Below are positions 16,901 to 27,812 of a stretch of DNA of 35,277 nt, piece after piece. The stretch spans positions 1 to 35,277 of the forward strand of contig CANQRW010000035.1 of NCBI GenBank assembly GCA_947626365.1. The letters are read 5' to 3'. The notes below the pieces were generated by a model. It ran no database searches. It had not been told where the DNA came from and worked only from the letters and a program-made list of their open reading frames with translations. The first letter of the stretch is position 1; every line of letters starts with the position of its first letter. Position numbers and translations under genes: made by a program. Source of the stretch: an uncultured Lachnospiraceae bacterium (GTDB taxonomy: Bacteria; Bacillota; Clostridia; Lachnospirales; Lachnospiraceae).

Positions 16901-17027
16901 AATGGCCTCAGCGCTGGATGGAGTGAATGTAACCATGGATAAACAGAAAGTCGGAAGCATCGTGTCAGAACCGGTCAATGATACCCTTGGCAGTCAGGCG
17001 AGGAGAGAGGGGCGCGATATCATATGA
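13947..17027 (+). CDS. Tail tape measure protein
   Basis: The protein of 1026 residues sets tail length and helps DNA injection. It starts MAYFDLQVFAADG with ACGGAGGG upstream. A hydrophobic segment follows (TLAAGVGAVTGAMGAGIVAGM, about residues 42-62), then the tape measure domain (MANFETMLGSAEAATDHV...FGTDADSVMPIMQQLGD), and a long central part of imperfect repeats with alternating LLTGLPQMLQ/SLVSGI-like units (about 270-540). After them come the box LGIHSPSRVFQDEVG (about 561-575) and a coiled-coil C-terminal half. The first nine residues carry the same FDLQVF peptide as the capsid and tail tube, which is unusual for a tape measure. Confidence 0.92.
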   Translation: MAYFDLQVFAADGHLFFDTVLDVLGFSNGINKLGSIAKTGLKTLAAGVGAVTGAMGAGIVAGMKYNADMQNYMANFETMLGSAEAATDHVNQLKEFAAKTPFEMSDLANASKTLLAFGTDADSVMPIMQQLGDISLGNKDKFNSLALVYGQVSSQGKLMGQDLLQMINAGFNPLQEISKHTGESMADLKDKMSKGQIGVEELNQALQWATEEGGQFSGGMEKASETMDGLISTLKDNAMSLLGEVVQPISDEMTNTLLPAAIDAMDQLSAAFQEDGMEGLIDAGADILANLVTGFVEALPSVIETALTFITTFVDALNENMPQLIEAAGLLITAIGEGLLQLAPSLLSLGESIVSNIILGITGNSGETTTAGEAILNGLIEFLSTGLPQMLQTGAELTSQLVSGILGKVPDAISSAGTIISQLITALMAGLPKMLESGVQLILSLVSGITGNLPSIAAAAVDVIGQLIVTIAENLPQMLQSGLELTGQLAAGLIQAIPDIISAAVEITTNIWDKIKEIDWLGLGADIISGIAKGLLNGLGTIAEAAKSVAKGALDAAKNFLGIHSPSRVFQDEVGKQIAVGLGDGIRNNKDYAQKSAEEISQAVLDAAKKKLDNYKVYNKLTLADEVAYWNEVRKQTNEGTQARIDADKEYLTAKEDLNDQLLTAEEDYSQKVAAAYQNLNDKIQDLNQEYRDAVDSRTDEIRNAFGLFDEADMSTDLTSGQLIHNLQSQVDALHSWQNNLNILEGRGIGSQLMEELQDLGPQAAAEIQILTDMTDDELEQYVSLFKQKNQIARAQAVEELEPMKQDIVRQIDDLRDETSRELAEYQQEYLDAMQELGAAINKPAEDIKLAMAQNAVQMVAGLASSIEEETEKPENTEKFKAIADNILKATDDLPSEMLLVGQTAIDSMIQGIKERSSALYQAMTEVVSTAVTQAVSAAISEETIQAVIDGTDSDVASVSLPAHVYGNEGFGPGYSMDYARIGQEMASALDGVNVTMDKQKVGSIVSEPVNDTLGSQARREGRDII

Positions 17028-17725
17028 CGTATATGGGTGTGACGTTTGATGAAGAGGTGCATACTTACGATGATTTTGGCCTGCGGATTACATCCGTTAA
17101 TATTGGGATGCCGGAAGTAAAAGATGAACATATCGAGATACCGGGAATGGACGGATACCTTGATATGACGGATTATTTCGGTACAAGATACAAAAATCGT
17201 AAGATCACGCTGCAGTGTGATTTTGAGGATGGCGGATATGATGTCTGGGCGGGGATCGTCAGCCAGATCAGTAATTATCTGCATGGCAAAAAGCGTAAGA
17301 TCGTGCTTGACTGGGATCCTGCTTACTATTATGTGGGTCGAGGTAAATGCAAGTATGACAAGAATAATCGTATCTATGGCAAACTAACACTGGAATTTGA
17401 TTGCGAGCCGTATAAGTACGAAATAATCACCTCAGATGATGATTGGTTATGGGATCCATTTGACTTTGAGACCGGTGTCATCCGTGAGTATCATGACCTG
17501 GCTATCAGCGGAACGTCAGATCTGATCATTATCGGATCACCTATGCCGGTAGTGCCACGTTTTGTTTCTTCAGCAGATATGACGTTGGAGTATGAAGGAG
17601 CGACTTACCAGATTAAAGCAGGAACCAACTATTTCCCAGAGCTGGAGATCACGGATGGAGAGCATACTATGAGATTTACTGGCAGCGGCACTATATCGAT
17701 CAGTTATAAGGCAGGAAGTTTATAA
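17024..17725 (+). CDS. Distal tail protein (Dit-like)
   Basis: The 233-residue protein forms the ring at the tail tip that carries the baseplate. The N-terminal part has IEIPGMDGYLDMTDYFGTRYKNRKITLQC, the typical Dit/Gp19.1 sequence with a PGxDGxxD turn and a YxNRxIxL strand. The C-terminal galectin-like part is beta-rich. It overlaps the tape measure by four bases (ATGA) and the tail-tip gene by one base. Confidence 0.82.
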   Translation: MTYMGVTFDEEVHTYDDFGLRITSVNIGMPEVKDEHIEIPGMDGYLDMTDYFGTRYKNRKITLQCDFEDGGYDVWAGIVSQISNYLHGKKRKIVLDWDPAYYYVGRGKCKYDKNNRIYGKLTLEFDCEPYKYEIITSDDDWLWDPFDFETGVIREYHDLAISGTSDLIIIGSPMPVVPRFVSSADMTLEYEGATYQIKAGTNYFPELEITDGEHTMRFTGSGTISISYKAGSL

Positions 17726-19704
17726 TGTATAAGATTATCAATGAGATTGACGGAAGAACATATCCGTTACATATTCAGACCAATCAAGACTGCAGGCTAA
17801 TAAATCCAAGATACACAGGTACTCTTAATAAAACGGGATCCCTTACTTTTCAGATCCCGGAAAGCCATATGTACTATGGAACGCTGGAGAAGCTGAGGTC
17901 TTCCGTTCAGCTGTATGAGGATGGAGAATTGATCTATGAAGGGCGAGTGATTTCAGATGAAGCTGATTTCTATAATGTGAAATCGGTAGTATGTGAAGGA
18001 AGTATGGCTTACCTGCAGGATAGCCTGATTCGGCCGTTTTCTTTAGAAGGCGGCATATCTGGATTCCTGCAGAAGGCTATTGAGCTGCATAACGGTCAGG
18101 TGGAAGCAAGAAAGCAGTTCACGCCGGGTCAAGTCACCGTAACTGGCGAAGGAAGCAACAAGCTCCGGGAGATCACGAACGTTATAGATACATGGTCTCT
18201 TCTGAAGGAGCAGCTGGTAGATATCTATGGCGGATATCTGTGGGTATCGTATCCTGATGGAAAAAAGGTGCTCAATTATACATGGGACTGCGGAGGGTAT
18301 AACCAGCAGAAGATCCGATTTGGAGAAAACCTGCTTGATCTGACCAGATATCAAGATGCAACATCTGTTGTAACCTGTCTAGTACCATACGGCGCTACAG
18401 TAGAGTACAAGGATGACCTGGGAGAAACACAAGAAAAGGTTATTGATATCACTTCAGTTAATGATGGGCAGGACTATTTGATGGCGGATCAGCCGCTTAT
18501 TGACCGCTATGGGAAAATATGGGCGGCTTATACGTGGCCGGACATTACAGAGCCGCGAACCCTGAAACTGACCGCAGAGCAGTTCCTCCGTGAAACAGCC
18601 GGTATTCCGGATACTTTAAAAGTATCGGCAGCTGATCTAAAGTATATTGGAGAAGATATCAGAGGCTTTCGATTGGGTCTGTACACAACGGCCGTCAGTA
18701 AGCCGCACAATATTCAGAAGGATTTTCTTTTGACCAAATTGGATATTTATCTGGATGATCCCGGCAAGGGGAGCATATCTCTTGGAGATGACCAGAAGAG
18801 CCTGACTGCAGAAACAAATAATCGTCAAGTGAAGATATCGAAAGCATTGGCTGAGGCGTCGAACAGTACGTTTAAGGAACTTGACCGTAAAATTGAGAAT
18901 GCCACAACGCTTATTACAGGAGGCTTTGGAGGGTATGTGATCCTGGATAATATCGACCCTCAAACAGGAAAGAAAATACATCCATGGCGAATCCTGATCA
19001 TGAATACGCCGGATAAAGCAACCGCGACCAATGTAATCCAGATCAACCAGAATGGTATAGGGTTTTCCACTACGGGGATCAATGGGCCCTATCGGAACGC
19101 CTGGACCATCGACGGCAACCTGGTGGCTGATTTTGTGACTACCGGCACCATGCTGGCCGACCGGATCCGGGGCGGCACGCTGGAGCTTGGCGGAACCGGG
19201 CTGGGCAAAAATGGCGTGATACTGATAAAGGATAAGAATGACAATGTCGTTGGGCAGATCGATATCAATGGAGTGAGATTTTCCGGAGGGACAATCACCG
19301 GAGGAACGATCAATGGGACCAATATCTACGGCGGAGACAATATCCCATTCAGCGCGACACGGGGGCAGGTGAGGATTGGCGATTTTTACGTTGACGACGA
19401 GTACGGGCGGCATATCTTCCAAAGCACTGATGAGGTTACTGGAATGTCAGCCGGCGTATCCGACAGAACAAAGGTCCTTTTATGGGCCGGATGGGGCCTG
19501 AGCACCATAAGAGAATCCTTCTTTTTAGTCCGAAGGAACGGCGACACGGAAGTCAACGGCCGTTTGTTGCTAAATGGCCGAAATATCCTTGATATCATTG
19601 CTTCATCCGGCGGGGGCGGCGGTGGATGTTCTGATTCTTGCGATGACGTTTGCGATAATGGATGTTACGGTGATTGTAACGTCGAAGAAATTATCATAGA
19701 TTGA
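17725..19704 (+). CDS. Tail-tip/tail-associated protein (Tal-like) with a C-terminal five-cysteine CX3 array
   Basis: Residues 1-390 resemble the N-terminal half of phage tail-tip/endopeptidase-tail proteins (MYKIINEIDGRTYPL..., IYEGRVISDE, YGATVEYKDD, LDIYLDDPGKGSISLGD), which bind Dit. Residues ~390-625 are a fibre-like, glycine-rich part (VRFSGGTITGGTINGTNIYGG). The last 34 residues are different: ASSGGGGGG, then cysteines at 635, 639, 643, 647 and 651, each four apart with acidic residues between (SDS, DDV, DNG, YGD), and a tail NVEEIIID. No other structural gene here has such a tail. The next gene starts 15 bases later and is a radical SAM/SPASM enzyme, so this end is probably its substrate. 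The alternative is a metal-binding or disulfide-linked tip. Confidence 0.8.
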   Translation: MYKIINEIDGRTYPLHIQTNQDCRLINPRYTGTLNKTGSLTFQIPESHMYYGTLEKLRSSVQLYEDGELIYEGRVISDEADFYNVKSVVCEGSMAYLQDSLIRPFSLEGGISGFLQKAIELHNGQVEARKQFTPGQVTVTGEGSNKLREITNVIDTWSLLKEQLVDIYGGYLWVSYPDGKKVLNYTWDCGGYNQQKIRFGENLLDLTRYQDATSVVTCLVPYGATVEYKDDLGETQEKVIDITSVNDGQDYLMADQPLIDRYGKIWAAYTWPDITEPRTLKLTAEQFLRETAGIPDTLKVSAADLKYIGEDIRGFRLGLYTTAVSKPHNIQKDFLLTKLDIYLDDPGKGSISLGDDQKSLTAETNNRQVKISKALAEASNSTFKELDRKIENATTLITGGFGGYVILDNIDPQTGKKIHPWRILIMNTPDKATATNVIQINQNGIGFSTTGINGPYRNAWTIDGNLVADFVTTGTMLADRIRGGTLELGGTGLGKNGVILIKDKNDNVVGQIDINGVRFSGGTITGGTINGTNIYGGDNIPFSATRGQVRIGDFYVDDEYGRHIFQSTDEVTGMSAGVSDRTKVLLWAGWGLSTIRESFFLVRRNGDTEVNGRLLLNGRNILDIIASSGGGGGGCSDSCDDVCDNGCYGDCNVEEIIID

Positions 19705-19718
19705 TGGAGGATGGGCCA

Positions 19719-21038
19719 ATGAAAATACTGCAAGCTTATAATGAAAAAATCCGTCAAGTGGCAAAATATCAATCGTATGATGTAGGAGAATCCTATCGAG
19801 AATCACCCTACCTCATAAAGGAAACTTTGAATGGTAAAACAGCTGTCTTTAACTGCTTTACCAGGGAGATCCTTTTGTTTACGGAGCAAGAATTCAAAAC
19901 ATCGTTCAATCCGAAGAGCAGGGCTTTTGTGGAAAGGTGGTATTTCCTGCCGGAGCATTGGGACGCCAGGACATGGCACGAATCATTTGCCCAGGAATAT
20001 CGATGGACAAATAAAAAGAGAGAGTTTGCCGGGATATCGAATTATGTGATACTGCCTACGCTGGGCTGTAACGCTGATTGCACATATTGTTTTCAGTGTG
20101 GCGAAAAGAAGAAAGTCATGACCGAAGAAACGGCGGATGCCGTAGCACAGTACATCTGGAAGACTTTTGCCGGCCAGGTAAAGCTGAAATGGTTTGGAGG
20201 CGAGCCGTTAATTAATGCGCCCATCATTACCCGCATATGCACAACGCTTCAGGGCTTGGGACTGAATTACGGATCCTTGATCGTGACAAATGGCCTCCTC
20301 GTCAATCAGATTGATATGGATACACTAAAAAATCTGTGGAGGGTCAATACCGTCCAGATCACCCTTGACGGGACGGAGCAATACTCCGATTCCGTCAAAC
20401 GATGGAAGAATCCGACCGGATATGAGTTTGACCGGGTACTGCACAATATCTCATATCTGATCGCCAATGATATACGGGTTAACATTCGCCTGAACGTATC
20501 AAAAGATAATGAGACGGAATTGCTGGAACTGATCGATATCCTGAAAGAGCGATTCGGAGGAACGGGAAGGATTTATTGCAGTCCTCACATCCTTTTTGAG
20601 GGTGTGGGAGAAGAACCAGAGGAATACACAGAAGAGGATTGTGCGGAACTGTACCGGATATGCAAGGCGGTCCAGGAAAAGCTTGTAGCTGCCGGATTAA
20701 GCAGGTATGATTCAGGGGCGGCAGTCCGACAATCCAATTGCATGGCGGATAACCTTTCATCTATCTGTATCTCTCCGGCCGGCAGCGTGACAGTGTGCGA
20801 GCATTATACGGATGACACAGAGCAGGTCATAGGTACGGTGTTTAACGACAAGATCGATCTGTCTATCGTGCATAACTGGCAGGCGCAGCTCCGGTGTGAT
20901 AAATGCAGTAATTGCGTTATCAGGCCACTTTGTACAAAAATAAAATTGTGTCCTGTGGGAAAATGTACGGAGGCTGAAAGAGACTATACAGAATGGCAGA
21001 TAAGGCAAACGTTGAGAGGAGGGATCCTAAATGGCTGA
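19719..21038 (+). CDS. Radical SAM/SPASM enzyme, probable maturase of the tail-tip protein
   Basis: The 439-residue protein contains the radical SAM cluster motif CNADCTYC (C117, C121, C124) and the SAM-binding GGEP in KWFGGEPLI. A C-terminal SPASM region for two auxiliary Fe-S clusters has C341, C350 and C360 (CISPAGSVTVC) and C393, C396, C399, C405, C411 and C416 (CDKCSNCVIRPLC, CPVGKC). The first ~110 residues (SYRESPYLIKETLNGKTAVFN, CFTREILLF) resemble the substrate-binding front part of peptide-modifying radical SAM enzymes such as sactipeptide and ranthipeptide maturases. GGAGG at 19706-19710 supports the ATG at 19719; the frame is open further up to 19701. It is inserted within the tail module between the tail-tip gene and the fibres and overlaps the next gene, so it is expressed with them. 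The family implies a protein substrate; the upstream Cys array is the best candidate. The chemistry (thioether or epimer) is not known. Confidence 0.88.
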   Translation: MKILQAYNEKIRQVAKYQSYDVGESYRESPYLIKETLNGKTAVFNCFTREILLFTEQEFKTSFNPKSRAFVERWYFLPEHWDARTWHESFAQEYRWTNKKREFAGISNYVILPTLGCNADCTYCFQCGEKKKVMTEETADAVAQYIWKTFAGQVKLKWFGGEPLINAPIITRICTTLQGLGLNYGSLIVTNGLLVNQIDMDTLKNLWRVNTVQITLDGTEQYSDSVKRWKNPTGYEFDRVLHNISYLIANDIRVNIRLNVSKDNETELLELIDILKERFGGTGRIYCSPHILFEGVGEEPEEYTEEDCAELYRICKAVQEKLVAAGLSRYDSGAAVRQSNCMADNLSSICISPAGSVTVCEHYTDDTEQVIGTVFNDKIDLSIVHNWQAQLRCDKCSNCVIRPLCTKIKLCPVGKCTEAERDYTEWQIRQTLRGGILNG

Positions 21039-21546
21039 TATCAGCAAAGAAATAAATGACTTTAGAAGTGCTAGATATGGTCGCCAGGTCCGCGGAAGCA
21101 TGATCTCCCTGGCGGAGAAGCTGAACCGCGAGATTGAAAATGATGTTGCGAACGCAGCGGACGCTGTCGCTGCTGCGGAGCGGTCGGCCACGGCAGCCAG
21201 CAGCGCTGCGACCAATGCGGCAGCCAGCGCAGCAGCAGCCCTGGAATCTCAGCAGGCGGCGGCTGACAGTGAAGGAAATGCTGCAGACAGTGCAGCGGAT
21301 GCGGAAGCATGGGCACATGGACGGGAGGATCATCCGCAAAATGCCACGGATAACTCCAAGTACTGGAGCGGCCGGTCGGAGACAGCAGCGACAGATGCGA
21401 AGAATCAGGCAGACCGGGCCATGGCTTATGCCGATTACGTGACACCGGATTTTCTGATGGACAATAACCGGGTGTATGTAAACGAGAAGGCAACTGTAAC
21501 CTTTGGAATCTTTGATAACAAGATGTATTTCAAATTACCAGCGTGA
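21031..21546 (+). CDS. Phage tail fibre / baseplate coiled-coil protein
   Basis: The 171-residue protein starts MADISKEINDFRSARYGRQVRGSMISLAEKL, a common N-terminal box in clostridial phage baseplate proteins. It continues as an alanine-rich coiled coil (about 40-90) with the fibre motif AEAWAHGREDH...NSKYWSGRSETAA (about 90-118) and ends in a short beta segment. Such proteins form trimeric stalks. AGAGGAGGG lies before the ATG, and the gene starts inside the radical SAM gene. Confidence 0.75.
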   Translation: MADISKEINDFRSARYGRQVRGSMISLAEKLNREIENDVANAADAVAAAERSATAASSAATNAAASAAAALESQQAAADSEGNAADSAADAEAWAHGREDHPQNATDNSKYWSGRSETAATDAKNQADRAMAYADYVTPDFLMDNNRVYVNEKATVTFGIFDNKMYFKLPA

Positions 21547-23932: not shown

Positions 23933-24421
23933 ATGGATTTTATTGATAAGTACAATCTGACGGTGGCAGCGATCGCCACAATATTATCTGCTGTATTTGG
24001 ACAGTATTATTACTTATTTGTAGGCTTTTTGCTGTGCAATATCCTGGACTGGCTGACAGGCTGGTACCGGAGCTATAAACTTCATCAAGAATCAAGTTAC
24101 GTCGGCCTGAAGGGAATCATCAAAAAGGTCGGATACTGGGCAATCCTCCTGGTATCATTCCTGATCCCTAATCTTCTGGTGCAATTTTTGGATGATATGC
24201 TGCATATCGATACGGGATTTCTGCTCCTGTTCGGATGGTTTACCTTGGCCACGCTGTTGATCAATGAGCTGCGATCCATTTTGGAAAATCTGGTAGAAGC
24301 CGGATTTAACGTCCCTGTATTTTTGATCCAGGGATTGGCTGTTGCCGAAAAACTGGTGTCAGCACACATTGAATTCGAGGAAGATACTGATCAGAATGAT
24401 GAGGAGGATAGTAGAAAATGA
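23933..24421 (+). CDS. Phage holin (phage_holin_4 / toxin secretion-phage lysis family)
   Basis: The 162-residue membrane protein has an N-terminal hydrophobic segment (about 9-26), the family signature LCNILDWLTGWYRSYK (about 35-50), and two more membrane segments (about 69-85 and 94-112). A GxSSxxGLKGIIKKVGYW-like box lies between them. An acidic C-terminal tail (EFEEDTDQNDEEDSRK) follows. Holins of this family make the membrane lesion that lets the endolysin reach the wall. GGAGG precedes the ATG, and the gene overlaps the amidase by four bases. Confidence 0.88.
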   Translation: MDFIDKYNLTVAAIATILSAVFGQYYYLFVGFLLCNILDWLTGWYRSYKLHQESSYVGLKGIIKKVGYWAILLVSFLIPNLLVQFLDDMLHIDTGFLLLFGWFTLATLLINELRSILENLVEAGFNVPVFLIQGLAVAEKLVSAHIEFEEDTDQNDEEDSRK

Positions 24422-25293
24422 AGATCTGTTTAGATGCCGGCCATTACGGCAAATATAATCAGAGTCCATGCAACAAAGCGTATTACGAATCAGACATGGT
24501 ATGGAAGCTGCACCTGCTGTTAAAGGAGCACCTGGAGGAATATGGGATTGAGGTAGTCACCACGCGGACAAGTCAGGAAAAAGATATGGTTTTATATAAT
24601 CGTGGGGCGACTTCTGCCGGCTGCGAATTGTTTATCAGCCTGCACAGTAACGCGGTAGGAAGTGGCCGAAATGAATCCGTGGATTACCCTGCGGCATACT
24701 GCGCCATCAATCACAGCGCGGATACAATAGGGGAGAAATTGGCGAAGTGTGTTGAGATGGTCATGCAGACAAAGCAGGAAGGACGCATTGAGCATGTGAA
24801 AGGTAAGAATGGTGATTATTACGGAGTGATCCGCGGTGCCACAGCCGTAGGAACGCCGGGACTGATCCTGGAGCATTCTTTCCACACAAATTCACAGGCA
24901 ACAACTTGGCTGCTGGACGATGGAAATCTGGACCGACTGGCAAATGCAGAAGCAGGCGTGATTGCAGCACATTACGGGATCAAGAAACCGGATCCAGTGA
25001 TTGTACCCGGCTGGCATGAGGATGAAAAGGGCTGGTGGTATCAGTACGAGGACGGCAGCTATCCTTCCAGCGGATGGGCCTGGCTGCATGAAGTAACAGG
25101 GAATACCTGGGGCTGGTACTTGCTTGATTCCGAGGGTTATATGCTGACCGGACATCAGACAGCGCCGGACGGCCGGCAGTATTATCTGTGTGAGGAGCCT
25201 GGAATTGACGAAGGCAAATGTATGGTCACCGATGACCAGGGCGCCCTTCACGTTGCAGAGTGGGATAACAAGAGCGAGCGGTATATCATTTAA
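24418..25293 (+). CDS. Phage endolysin, N-acetylmuramoyl-L-alanine amidase (Amidase_3)
   Basis: Residues 1-190 are a zinc amidase that cuts the bond between muramic acid and the peptide stem: H9 in DAGHYG, E24, H76 in ISLHSN and catalytic E152 in LILEHSF. The C-terminal part (about 195-291) has wall-binding repeats of the choline-binding-like type (GWWYQYEDGSYPSSGWAWL, WGWYLLDSEGYMLTG). There is no signal peptide, as expected for a holin-dependent lysin. It is the last gene of the late operon and is followed by a strong terminator. Confidence 0.92.
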   Translation: MKICLDAGHYGKYNQSPCNKAYYESDMVWKLHLLLKEHLEEYGIEVVTTRTSQEKDMVLYNRGATSAGCELFISLHSNAVGSGRNESVDYPAAYCAINHSADTIGEKLAKCVEMVMQTKQEGRIEHVKGKNGDYYGVIRGATAVGTPGLILEHSFHTNSQATTWLLDDGNLDRLANAEAGVIAAHYGIKKPDPVIVPGWHEDEKGWWYQYEDGSYPSSGWAWLHEVTGNTWGWYLLDSEGYMLTGHQTAPDGRQYYLCEEPGIDEGKCMVTDDQGALHVAEWDNKSERYII

Positions 25294-27333: not shown

Positions 27334-27361
27334 ACACAATGTCCAACACTTACATAAGATA
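27334..27361 (+). promoter_or_regulatory. Sigma-K-like promoter of the Cys-rich gene
   Basis: CATAAGATA (27353-27361) fits the sigma-K -10 pattern CATAnnnTA. An ACAC (27334-27337) stands about 16 bases upstream, where the short AC-type -35 is expected. Sigma-K acts in the mother cell late in sporulation. Confidence 0.45.
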
Positions 27362-27395
27362 TAGTACAAACCTGAAAAATCAAGGAGATTTCAAT

Positions 27396-27812
27396 ATGAG
27401 CTGCTTTTTTGGATGTAATTGCTGTGGTTGCCATCACAGCTGTGGATGTAATAATGGAAATAACAGCGGAGTAGGCGGAGATTCCACTAATAATAACAAT
27501 GGCTGCGGCTGCCGCCCCTGCTGCAAGCCGTGCCGTCCCTGCTGCCGTCCCTGCAGACCCTGCTGCGGCGGAAATAACAGCGGAGTAGGCGGAGATTCCA
27601 CCAACAATAATAATTGCGTGTGCAGATGCTACTGCACCTGCGGGAACAATTCCTCCAATACGGGAACTGCCGGGGCAAACACCAATTCCTGCACCAATTC
27701 CTGCGGCTGCACAAACAATGATGCGGTCAATACCATCTCCAACGGCGGATATTACACCTATATTCAGCCGACAACTACCAGCACCGGTTCTTCCTGCGGC
27801 TGCCAGAACTGA
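27396..27812 (+). CDS. Cysteine-rich, repeat-containing protein, probable spore surface protein
   Basis: The 138-residue protein has about 35 cysteines. It starts MSCFFGCNCCGCHHSCGC, contains two copies of a GNNSGVGGDSTNNNN spacer (about 22-36 and 59-73), a basic CxPCC-type block between them (CRPCCKPCRPCCRPCRPCC), and ends GSSCGCQN. There is no signal peptide. Such Cys/Asn-rich proteins are typical of spore coats and exosporium crusts, where they are cross-linked. The sigma-K-like promoter and the nearby cotJC support this. AAGGAG before the ATG at 27396 fixes the start. No family can be named. Confidence 0.7.
   Translation: MSCFFGCNCCGCHHSCGCNNGNNSGVGGDSTNNNNGCGCRPCCKPCRPCCRPCRPCCGGNNSGVGGDSTNNNNCVCRCYCTCGNNSSNTGTAGANTNSCTNSCGCTNNDAVNTISNGGYYTYIQPTTTSTGSSCGCQN

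What the first reader, a model, noticed from the sequence alone, without database searches (positions are those of the whole stretch)
19627..21038. Radical SAM/SPASM enzyme paired with a five-cysteine CX3 array at the end of the phage tail-tip protein
Seen: the tail-tip protein ends with six glycines and Cys635, 639, 643, 647 and 651, exactly four apart and interspersed with acidic residues. A radical SAM enzyme with the CX3CX2C motif and a SPASM region starts 15 bases later in the same operon, inside the tail module. Known: radical SAM/SPASM maturases install thioether and related crosslinks on Cys-rich peptides; PapB of the ranthipeptide freyrasin joins Cys to an acidic residue four positions on in CX3D repeats. 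Inference: the phage post-translationally modifies its own virion tip, with the Gly6 stretch as linker and the structural protein as a giant precursor. The crosslinked knob could stabilise the tip, bind a receptor or attack the envelope. I know of no described RiPP-like modification of a phage tail.
Basis: partly seen in the sequence, partly recalled or inferred. Interest (0 to 1): 0.95.

Follow-up and report, generated by a model that had tools for sequence, protein, structure and literature searches.

The report
Phage tail-tip peptide with dedicated maturase
A prophage in a gut-type bacterium ends its tail-tip protein with a cysteine-rich stretch and places right behind it an enzyme related to those that cross-link cysteine-rich peptides; the same pairing recurs on several different phage tails, which suggests that some phages chemically modify their own tips.

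Summary
The tail-tip protein (17725-19704) ends in Gly6 and five cysteines exactly four residues apart (19627-19677), and an intact radical SAM/SPASM gene follows 14 bases later (19719-21038). The pairing recurs. Enzyme-based scans found it directly behind phage tail or tail-like proteins of at least four N-terminal types that BLAST does not connect. In 18 of 19 such loci that protein ends Cys-rich; L129 is the exception. In tail-first scans 0 of 140 usable rows without the enzyme had such an end (92 rows under a stricter homology test). The tail-linked enzymes form nearly one group inside a family whose cellular members often sit beside short Cys/Asp/Gly peptides and PqqD-like genes; none of 20 phage loci has a PqqD-like gene. 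Best explanation: a phage-borne, RiPP-like maturation system whose precursor is the C-terminus of a virion protein. Thioether cross-linking is the likeliest chemistry but untested. The strict CX3 period is not general: spacing elsewhere runs from 1 to 12 residues, so a PapB-type CX3D register is not supported. Nine open-access literature searches listed no description of it. No experiment or structure prediction was possible.

The parts
17725..19704 (+). tail-tip (Tal/spike-like) protein, 659 aa, proposed substrate
   Evidence: PF06605 65.1 bits, TIGR01665 40.9 bits; phrog_3558 tail protein E 7.8e-104
19300..19608 (+). C-terminal tip domain (GDFYVDDEYGRHIFQSTDEVTGMS...NGRNILDIIASS), found with and without Cys arrays in other phages
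   Evidence: alignments A2 and A7; homologs without array and without enzyme found: L144 contig as L279, L369
19609..19626 (+). six-glycine linker, residues 629-634
   Evidence: direct reading; not conserved in relatives
19627..19677 (+). five-cysteine array CSDSCDDVCDNGCYGDC, proposed modification site
19678..19701 (+). acidic/hydrophobic C-terminal end NVEEIIID
19706..19710 (+). GGAGG ribosome-binding-like site in the 14-base gap between the two genes
   Evidence: direct reading
19719..21038 (+). radical SAM/SPASM enzyme, 439 aa, proposed maturase
   Evidence: PF04055 above cut-off; best NCBIfam TIGR04463 137.5 bits but cut-off 525; profile of kin reaches PDB 5wgg, E 3.7e-21
20067..20090 (+). 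CX3CX2C radical SAM cluster motif (CNADCTYC)
   Evidence: cysteines invariant in 40 rows
20739..20966 (+). SPASM region, seven cysteines C341-C416 (CX13GX4C, CX2CX5CX5CX4C)
   Evidence: invariant in 40 rows
17024..17725 (+). distal tail protein (Dit)
   Evidence: phrog_33 E 3e-27; PF05709
13905..17027 (+). tail tape measure protein
   Evidence: phrog_1686 E 2.3e-76
21031..21546 (+). next gene downstream, overlapping the enzyme gene by 8 bases
   Evidence: phrog_21765 (unknown function) and weak tail-fibre hits

Best explanation
The tail-tip gene and the radical SAM/SPASM gene form a two-gene, phage-borne maturation system. The C-terminal Cys/Asp/Gly/Ser-rich extension of the tip protein is the substrate, and the tail protein itself takes the place of a leader peptide. 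While the prophage makes virions in its host, the enzyme modifies the cysteines, most likely by linking each sulfur to the side chain of a nearby residue (Asp, Glu or Thr) as thioethers. This leaves a compact, non-reducible knob on the tip that could resist proteases and contact the host surface. Shown here: the genes, their recurrence on different tails, the absence of arrays in rows without the enzyme, and kinship to maturases of Cys-rich peptides. Inferred: substrate identity, thioether chemistry, retention on the virion, and the role in stability or adsorption.
For: Enzyme-first: in 18 of 19 loci with the enzyme directly behind a phage tail or tail-like gene, that protein has at least 4 Cys in its last 60 residues; stop-to-start gap -4 to +47 bases. 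An automated recount over 115 distinct enzymes of at least 200 bits (standard code, so L158 cannot appear) recovers the other 18 of these loci, 17 of them Cys-rich; among the remaining upstream ORFs it listed, those with 5 or 6 Cys look like neighbouring radical SAM/SPASM enzymes by their C-termini. N-terminal types that BLAST does not connect at E 0.01: window with L124/L128 (weakly, E 8e-5), L039/L047/L152, L050, L150, L153 and L158 (families). Tail-first: 0 of 140 usable rows without the enzyme reach 4 Cys. L369, 37% identical to the window tail, ends without Cys and has no enzyme in 1389 downstream bases. On a 61-row tail tree three independent starred pairs all change enzyme and array together. 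Arrays are 19.8% Cys and 18.4% Asp against 0.9% and 6.3% in the rest of the same proteins; cores of 18 short peptides beside cellular kin are 10.2% and 13.5%. Tail-linked enzymes cluster in the tree (2 changes, shuffled mean 18.6). Cys at distance 1 or 2 are avoided (z -4.8, -3.1) and CXXC spacing is not enriched (z -1.7).
Against: L129 has the enzyme (cut by the contig end) beside a Ser/Asp/Gly-rich C-terminus with 1 Cys in the last 60 residues. In L155 the Cys-rich stretch lies in another frame with stops even if TAG is sense. None of the 11 enzymes scanned passes a curated NCBIfam maturase cut-off. The PqqD-like partner of many cellular kin is missing in 20 of 20 phage loci, and the N-terminal domain shows no profile similarity to PqqD (hhalign probability 0.1), so substrate recognition is unexplained. 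No Cys-to-acceptor spacing is conserved. The positives of the tail-first scans were already known from the enzyme scans and served in the queries; many negatives are near kin; 48 of the 140 negatives are not firmly tail homologs (for T2, bit scores for T4). The Fisher value (1.8e-12) therefore overstates the case, and the sign test on the tree is not significant (p 0.25). L153 and L158 have no informative tail family. No experiment.
Confidence: 0.72

Rival explanations
1. The enzyme acts on the array but makes something other than a side-chain thioether: for example an alpha-carbon (sactionine) link, oxidation of Cys or Ser to formylglycine as anaerobic sulfatase maturases do, epimerisation, or metal insertion. 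A formylglycine aldehyde could bind host amines.
For: SPASM enzymes catalyse several reactions (recalled); P0002 also hits the sulfatase maturase model TIGR03942 at 8.3e-13; L129 has Ser where others have Cys.
Against: The best hits are maturases of Cys-rich or similar peptides (TIGR04463, FlmE/OhkG, Clo7bot, CefB, geopeptide, PapB), and the best PDB match of the kin profile is 5wgg, which I recall as the thioether-forming CteB. The window array has no CXPXR sulfatase motif (motif recalled).
Confidence: 0.17
2. The Cys/acidic array is a metal-binding or disulfide-linked tip that works without enzymatic modification, and the radical SAM gene is an independent cargo gene.
For: Cys- and Asp-rich stretches can bind metals (recalled); the register to acidic residues is weak.
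Against: Array and enzyme co-occur on different tails, and no row without the enzyme carried an array; CXXC spacing is not enriched.
Confidence: 0.06
3. The array is a passenger RiPP: it is modified and then cut off the tail protein and released as a bacteriocin or signal.
For: Cellular kin have short separate peptides nearby in 22 of 90 cases and PqqD-like genes in 51 of 74 loci; an ABC transporter-like gene was read in the G008 and G025 clusters.
Against: No PqqD-like gene in 20 of 20 phage loci. I saw no protease or exporter gene next to the window pair but ran no search for one in the other phage loci. Arrays stay in frame at the ends of proteins of 273 to 1402 residues.
Confidence: 0.05

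Closest known systems
TIGR04463 (rSAM_vs_C_rich), Clo7bot TIGR04334, CefB NF038107 peptide maturases
   Same: radical SAM/SPASM enzymes named for Cys-rich or similar peptides; best profile hits of P0002 and of most kin scanned
   Different: scores far below the curated cut-offs (137.5 of 525; 105.2 of 600; 102.7 of 600); the partner here is a tail protein, not a short peptide
PapB / freyrasin ranthipeptide system
   Same: SPASM enzyme; Cys near acidic residues; PapB tolerates Cys-Xn-Asp with n = 0-6 (abstract and passages of PMC9413430), which fits variable spacing
   Different: 83.2 of 340 bits; the window array has no CX3D series (only C651-X3-E655 fits CX3E); no short leader peptide
CteB (PDB 5wgg; identity of the entry recalled)
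   Same: best solved-structure match of the kin profile, E 3.7e-21 over positions 107-403
   Different: P0002 alone finds nothing in the PDB at E 0.01; CteB acts on a short six-Cys peptide (recalled)
Siphophage Tal / Prophage_tail (PF06605) proteins
   Same: the proposed substrate in the window is one
   Different: homologs without the enzyme have at most 3 Cys in the last 60 residues
Radical SAM genes reported in other phages (PMC10773633, PMC5332604; passages read)
   Same: phage-encoded radical SAM genes
   Different: the passages discuss quorum sensing or Fe-S metabolism and name no tail partner

Membership tests
Radical SAM superfamily | CX3CX2C cluster motif and PF04055 above gathering score | tested here: met
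   C117/C121/C124; 56.2 bits against 29.5
SPASM subfamily | seven auxiliary-cluster cysteines (consensus CX9-15GX4C ... CX2CX5CX3C ... C recalled) | tested here: inconclusive
   seven Cys invariant in 40 rows; CX13GX4C and CX2CX5C fit, but the next spacing is X5 rather than X3
TIGR04463, Clo7bot, CefB or PapB equivalogs | score above NCBIfam cut-off | tested here: not met
   137.5/525, 105.2/600, 102.7/600, 83.2/340 bits; ten kin also below
RiPP system | short discrete precursor peptide beside the maturase | tested here: not met
   the candidate substrate is the end of a 659-aa tail protein
RiPP system | PqqD-like recognition protein, as in many cellular kin | tested here: not met
   0 of 20 phage loci (21 entries scanned, two of them one contig) against 51 of 74 cellular loci; no fused PqqD-like domain detected
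Ranthipeptide (non-alpha thioether) | Cys sulfur linked to a side-chain carbon, -2 Da per link | not testable with these tools
   needs mass spectrometry
Phage tail tip (Prophage_tail PF06605) | profile above cut-off and place after Dit in the tail module | tested here: met
   65.1 bits against 31.3; Dit and tape measure upstream
RiPP-like modification of the tail | enzyme and Cys-rich substrate occur together and not apart | tested here: met
   18 of 19 with the enzyme, 0 of 140 rows without; 3 of 3 starred independent pairs agree, too few for significance; L129 is the exception

The most novel reading that the evidence does not exclude
A widespread, unrecognised class of virion-borne RiPPs: phages carry mobile [Cys-rich C-terminal extension + SPASM maturase] cassettes that settle behind dissimilar tail proteins, including a large contig that reads TAG as Gln and contigs whose tail genes look unlike those of siphophages (morphotypes not tested). 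They turn tail tips into radical-made, non-reducible crosslinked knobs, a covalent stabilisation that works where disulfides cannot form.
Probability: 0.5. Interest if true: 0.95.

Novelty: new variant of a known kind. Interest (0 to 1): 0.87.

Why it matters
Covalent modification of a virion by a dedicated virus-encoded radical enzyme would be, as far as I know, without precedent in phages. It makes the chemistry at the tip directly testable: one enzyme, one C-terminal peptide, one mass shift. It could explain how phages of anaerobes stabilise exposed tips in reducing, protease-rich surroundings, and it would extend SPASM peptide maturases from small peptides to virion proteins.

Tried and rejected
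A single-sequence scan of viral contigs with P0002 found nothing; an alignment of three kin was needed. Chance as the source of the five-Cys period was rejected. A conserved CX3 or CX3D register was tested on 15 arrays against shuffles and is weak: the largest values among 77 uncorrected tests were Ser at +2 (z 3.3), Asp/Glu/Thr at +4 (3.2), Thr at +4 (3.0), acidic at +3 (2.8) and Asp at +1 (2.8). A fused PqqD-like domain was not found. The shared C-terminal CGPGDGL of L050, L124 and L129 looked like a recognition tag; part of it reads GGGGAT or GGAGAC before the enzyme's start and may be a ribosome-binding site, though third codon positions vary, so it stays open. Named phage records hold only distant kin (7, 4 and 3 records); of the four I opened (read) none showed the tail pairing; the others were not opened. 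An early draft called the window's and the L124/L128 tails unrelated; one search shows them weakly related, and the claim was cut to four types with a tail family.

Rows dropped: T1 counted 57 of 80 loci, T2 61 of 80 (5 without a following ORF), T3 17 of 29, T4 14 of 31 (4 without a tail ORF); the rest were truncated or had 900 bases or fewer downstream. Dropped T1 and T2 rows did not exceed 3 Cys, nor did the T3 and T4 rows without the enzyme. In T2 the 'tail' is the longest ORF starting near the anchor's end and was not checked in the first count; only 17 of its 58 negatives are homologous to the known tail proteins of this type, and 7 of the 13 T4 negatives match the tail profile at under 50 bits; without these the total is 92. 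Kept out of the 19-locus count: L154 and L065 (giant arrays, alternative codes) and L155 (array in another frame).
Full report
OBSERVATION. The window is one whole contig (35,277 bases) of a 3.5-Mb, 144-contig genome. Terminase and portal genes lie at its left, then tape measure, Dit and the tail-tip gene, and an amidase at 24418-25293; what reads like host genes follows. The tail-tip protein P0001 (659 aa) ends SSGGGGGGCSDSCDDVCDNGCYGDCNVEEIIID. The five-Cys codon pattern occurs once, at 19627-19677, and in none of 100 shuffles. The enzyme P0002 (439 aa) follows after 14 bases with a GGAGG site.

ENZYME. P0002 passes PF04055. Its best NCBIfam matches are TIGR04463 (137.5 bits), FlmE/OhkG, Clo7bot, CefB, geopeptide and PapB, all peptide maturases and all far below their cut-offs. 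Ten kin, six tail-linked and four cellular, also stay below every cut-off. A profile of ten tail-linked kin (P0002 among them) finds PDB 5wgg first (E 3.7e-21), which I recall as CteB; P0002 alone finds nothing at E 0.01. CX3CX2C and seven SPASM cysteines are invariant in 40 aligned rows.

RECURRENCE. Among 195 related genomes two of the same genus hold kin at 38-39% identity directly behind a tail protein (G021, G017). Those tail proteins have other N-termini but share the C-terminal tip domain (59-64% identity over A2) and end CTDDCDCDTGYEDPCDIC... and GGCSDDCPSDTVCSDSPCSEC.... Scans of genome contigs (79 loci kept of 236 relatives) and viral contigs gave L047, L050, L124-L129, L145, L146, L149-L153 and L158, a contig of 82,767 bases whose 1402-aa upstream frame holds 18 TAG and no other stop codon and ends ECGGQCQQDCDEQCGQWECGGCDYTPPSECDEWECSCDTECYGPGW just before the enzyme. 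In 18 of these 19 loci (with the window, L039 and L040) the upstream protein has at least 4 Cys in its last 60 residues; L129 has 1. Some are near copies (L145/L146, L149/L150). An automated recount over every locus held lists 115 distinct enzymes of at least 200 bits; 35 have an ORF of at least 200 aa ending close upstream. These include 18 of the 19 loci (L158 needs code 15), 17 of them Cys-rich. Of the other 17, eight have 5 or 6 Cys at the end and read like neighbouring radical SAM/SPASM enzymes, and nine have 0 to 3; in L154 the ORF picked is not the Cys-rich one. By BLAST the N-termini fall into unconnected sets: window with L124 and L128 (E 8e-5 and 3e-3), L039 with L047 and L152, L050, L150, L153, L158. 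The first four have tail-type or minor-head PHROG matches; L153 and L158 do not.

CONTROLS. Starting from tails rather than the enzyme: T1 (A4 scan) 4 with both, 53 with neither; T2 (A5 anchor scan) 2 both, 58 neither, 1 enzyme without array, L129; T3 (P0001 in 397 genomes) 1 both, the window itself, and 16 neither; T4 (A9 in viral contigs and 397 genomes) 1 both, 13 neither. Together 8 both, 140 neither, 1 enzyme alone, 0 array alone; Fisher 1.8e-12. Cautions: the positives were already known from the enzyme scans and were part of the queries; many rows are kin; T2 rows were not at first checked to be tails, and a homology test keeps 17 of its 58 negatives, while 6 of the 13 T4 negatives match the profile at over 100 bits, so the strict total is 92. 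The informative part is the empty fourth cell. On a tree of 61 T1-type tails, 4 of them added because they carry the enzyme, all 3 independent starred pairs change enzyme and array together (p 0.25, too few). The shared tip domain occurs in L142-L144 with Cys-free ends; L142 and L143 have little downstream sequence, but L279, the contig of L144, has 3177 bases and no enzyme. The closest tail found, L344 in G712 (61% identical over residues 1-593), ends without Cys but has only 301 downstream bases and was not counted; G712 as a whole gives two weak matches to the enzyme profile, 62 and 37 bits, on other contigs.

EVOLUTION. In a 113-row tree the 20 tail-linked enzymes (L129 left out, L154, L155 included) need 2 changes of label (shuffled mean 18.6); 19 of 20 lie in one group with SH-aLRT 81, not starred, nested among cellular enzymes. 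The twentieth, L154, pairs with L065, labelled cellular, which has a giant Cys-rich stretch upstream when TAG is read as Gln. Cellular kin resemble RiPP maturases: by one regular expression 23 of 90 had a short neighbouring peptide, 22 after removing a PqqD-like protein (M..YxxxELEIIxFDxEDVITxS, then Cys/Asp/Gly), and 51 of 74 loci have a PqqD-like gene against 0 of 20 phage loci (21 entries, L040 and L046 being one contig).

ARRAYS. Pooled arrays (17 of the 19 proteins; L129 and L146 left out, L126 represented by 5 residues only) are 19.8% Cys, 18.4% Asp, 15.9% Gly and 12.4% Ser, with 0.7% Lys plus Arg; the rest of the same proteins has 0.9% Cys. Spacing runs from 1 to 12, most often 5. Shuffles of 15 arrays show weak residue preferences and avoidance of Cys at distances 1 and 2. 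PapB accepts Cys-Xn-Asp with n from 0 to 6 (PMC9413430, abstract and passages), so variable spacing does not argue against thioether links.

MECHANISM. Most likely the enzyme acts on the tip protein before release, guided by the tail protein itself rather than a PqqD-bound leader. The chemistry is inferred from kinship, the function from position at the very end of the tip protein. Thioethers would survive reducing, protease-rich surroundings; the habitats of the viral contigs were not checked.

LITERATURE. Ten searches of open-access PubMed Central text were made; nine bear on novelty (radical SAM with phage/tail/RiPP; tail protein/prophage/SPASM; ranthipeptide/phage; thioether/tail fiber; crAss-like phage; virion/post-translational modification; gut phage/tail; SPASM/cysteine-rich/phage; prophage/Lachnospiraceae). 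Judged by titles and starts of abstracts, no listed paper describes such a tail modification; the lists showed 24 of 28 and 15 of 25 papers. I read passages of PMC10773633 and PMC5332604, which mention phage radical SAM genes without a tail link; the other listed papers were not opened. Subscription journals and preprint servers were not searched.

VERDICT. A real, recurrent and apparently undescribed pairing. I file the enzyme as a new branch near the SPASM peptide maturases and the system as a RiPP-like variant whose substrate is a virion protein; RiPP membership in the strict sense fails on the discrete precursor and PqqD features. Interest 0.87; confidence 0.72 in the substrate-and-crosslink explanation.

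Noticed in passing
window 27339-27812 (+): A 157-aa protein in the host-like flank, extremely Cys-rich (CGCRPCCKPCRPCCRPC), with no Pfam match at E 0.01.
   Followed up: no
L041, L042, L043 (G008 and G025, same genus as the window): Tandem copies of enzymes 31-33% identical to P0002; L041 and L043 also hold a PqqD-like protein (L041's passes PF05402) and what read like signal-peptidase and ABC transporter genes: RiPP-like clusters with duplicated maturases.
   Followed up: partly
L154 6430-7952; L065 upstream of 4369: Giant Cys arrays of CTCNAVSCAQC type (two L154 ORFs with 42 and 68 Cys) upstream of enzymes of the same branch; L065 reads as one long Cys-rich frame only if TAG is Gln.
   Followed up: partly
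L155 7289-7989: After the tail stop a Cys-rich stretch lies in another frame, with TAA stops even if TAG is sense, just before the enzyme; frameshift, assembly fault or decay not resolved.
   Followed up: partly
L129 2525-3820: The enzyme sits behind a C-terminus of Ser/Asp/Gly-rich repeats with one Cys in the last 60 residues, ending CGPGDGL, the same seven residues that end the L050 and L124 proteins.
   Followed up: partly
L124 and L125, ends of the enzyme genes: The enzymes themselves end in VCGVC and VVPCGVC, an extra Cys-containing tail.
   Followed up: no
L400 3120-3368: An ORF ending STACNCNCNCNCTRGIL lies two genes upstream of a distant radical SAM gene; possibly a more remote version of the pairing.
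   Followed up: partly
L160 2262-2468: A contig from the viral collection carries a short peptide ending ENVCDCTSYQVYQ upstream of a radical SAM/SPASM gene outside the tail-linked group, perhaps an ordinary RiPP pair.
   Followed up: no
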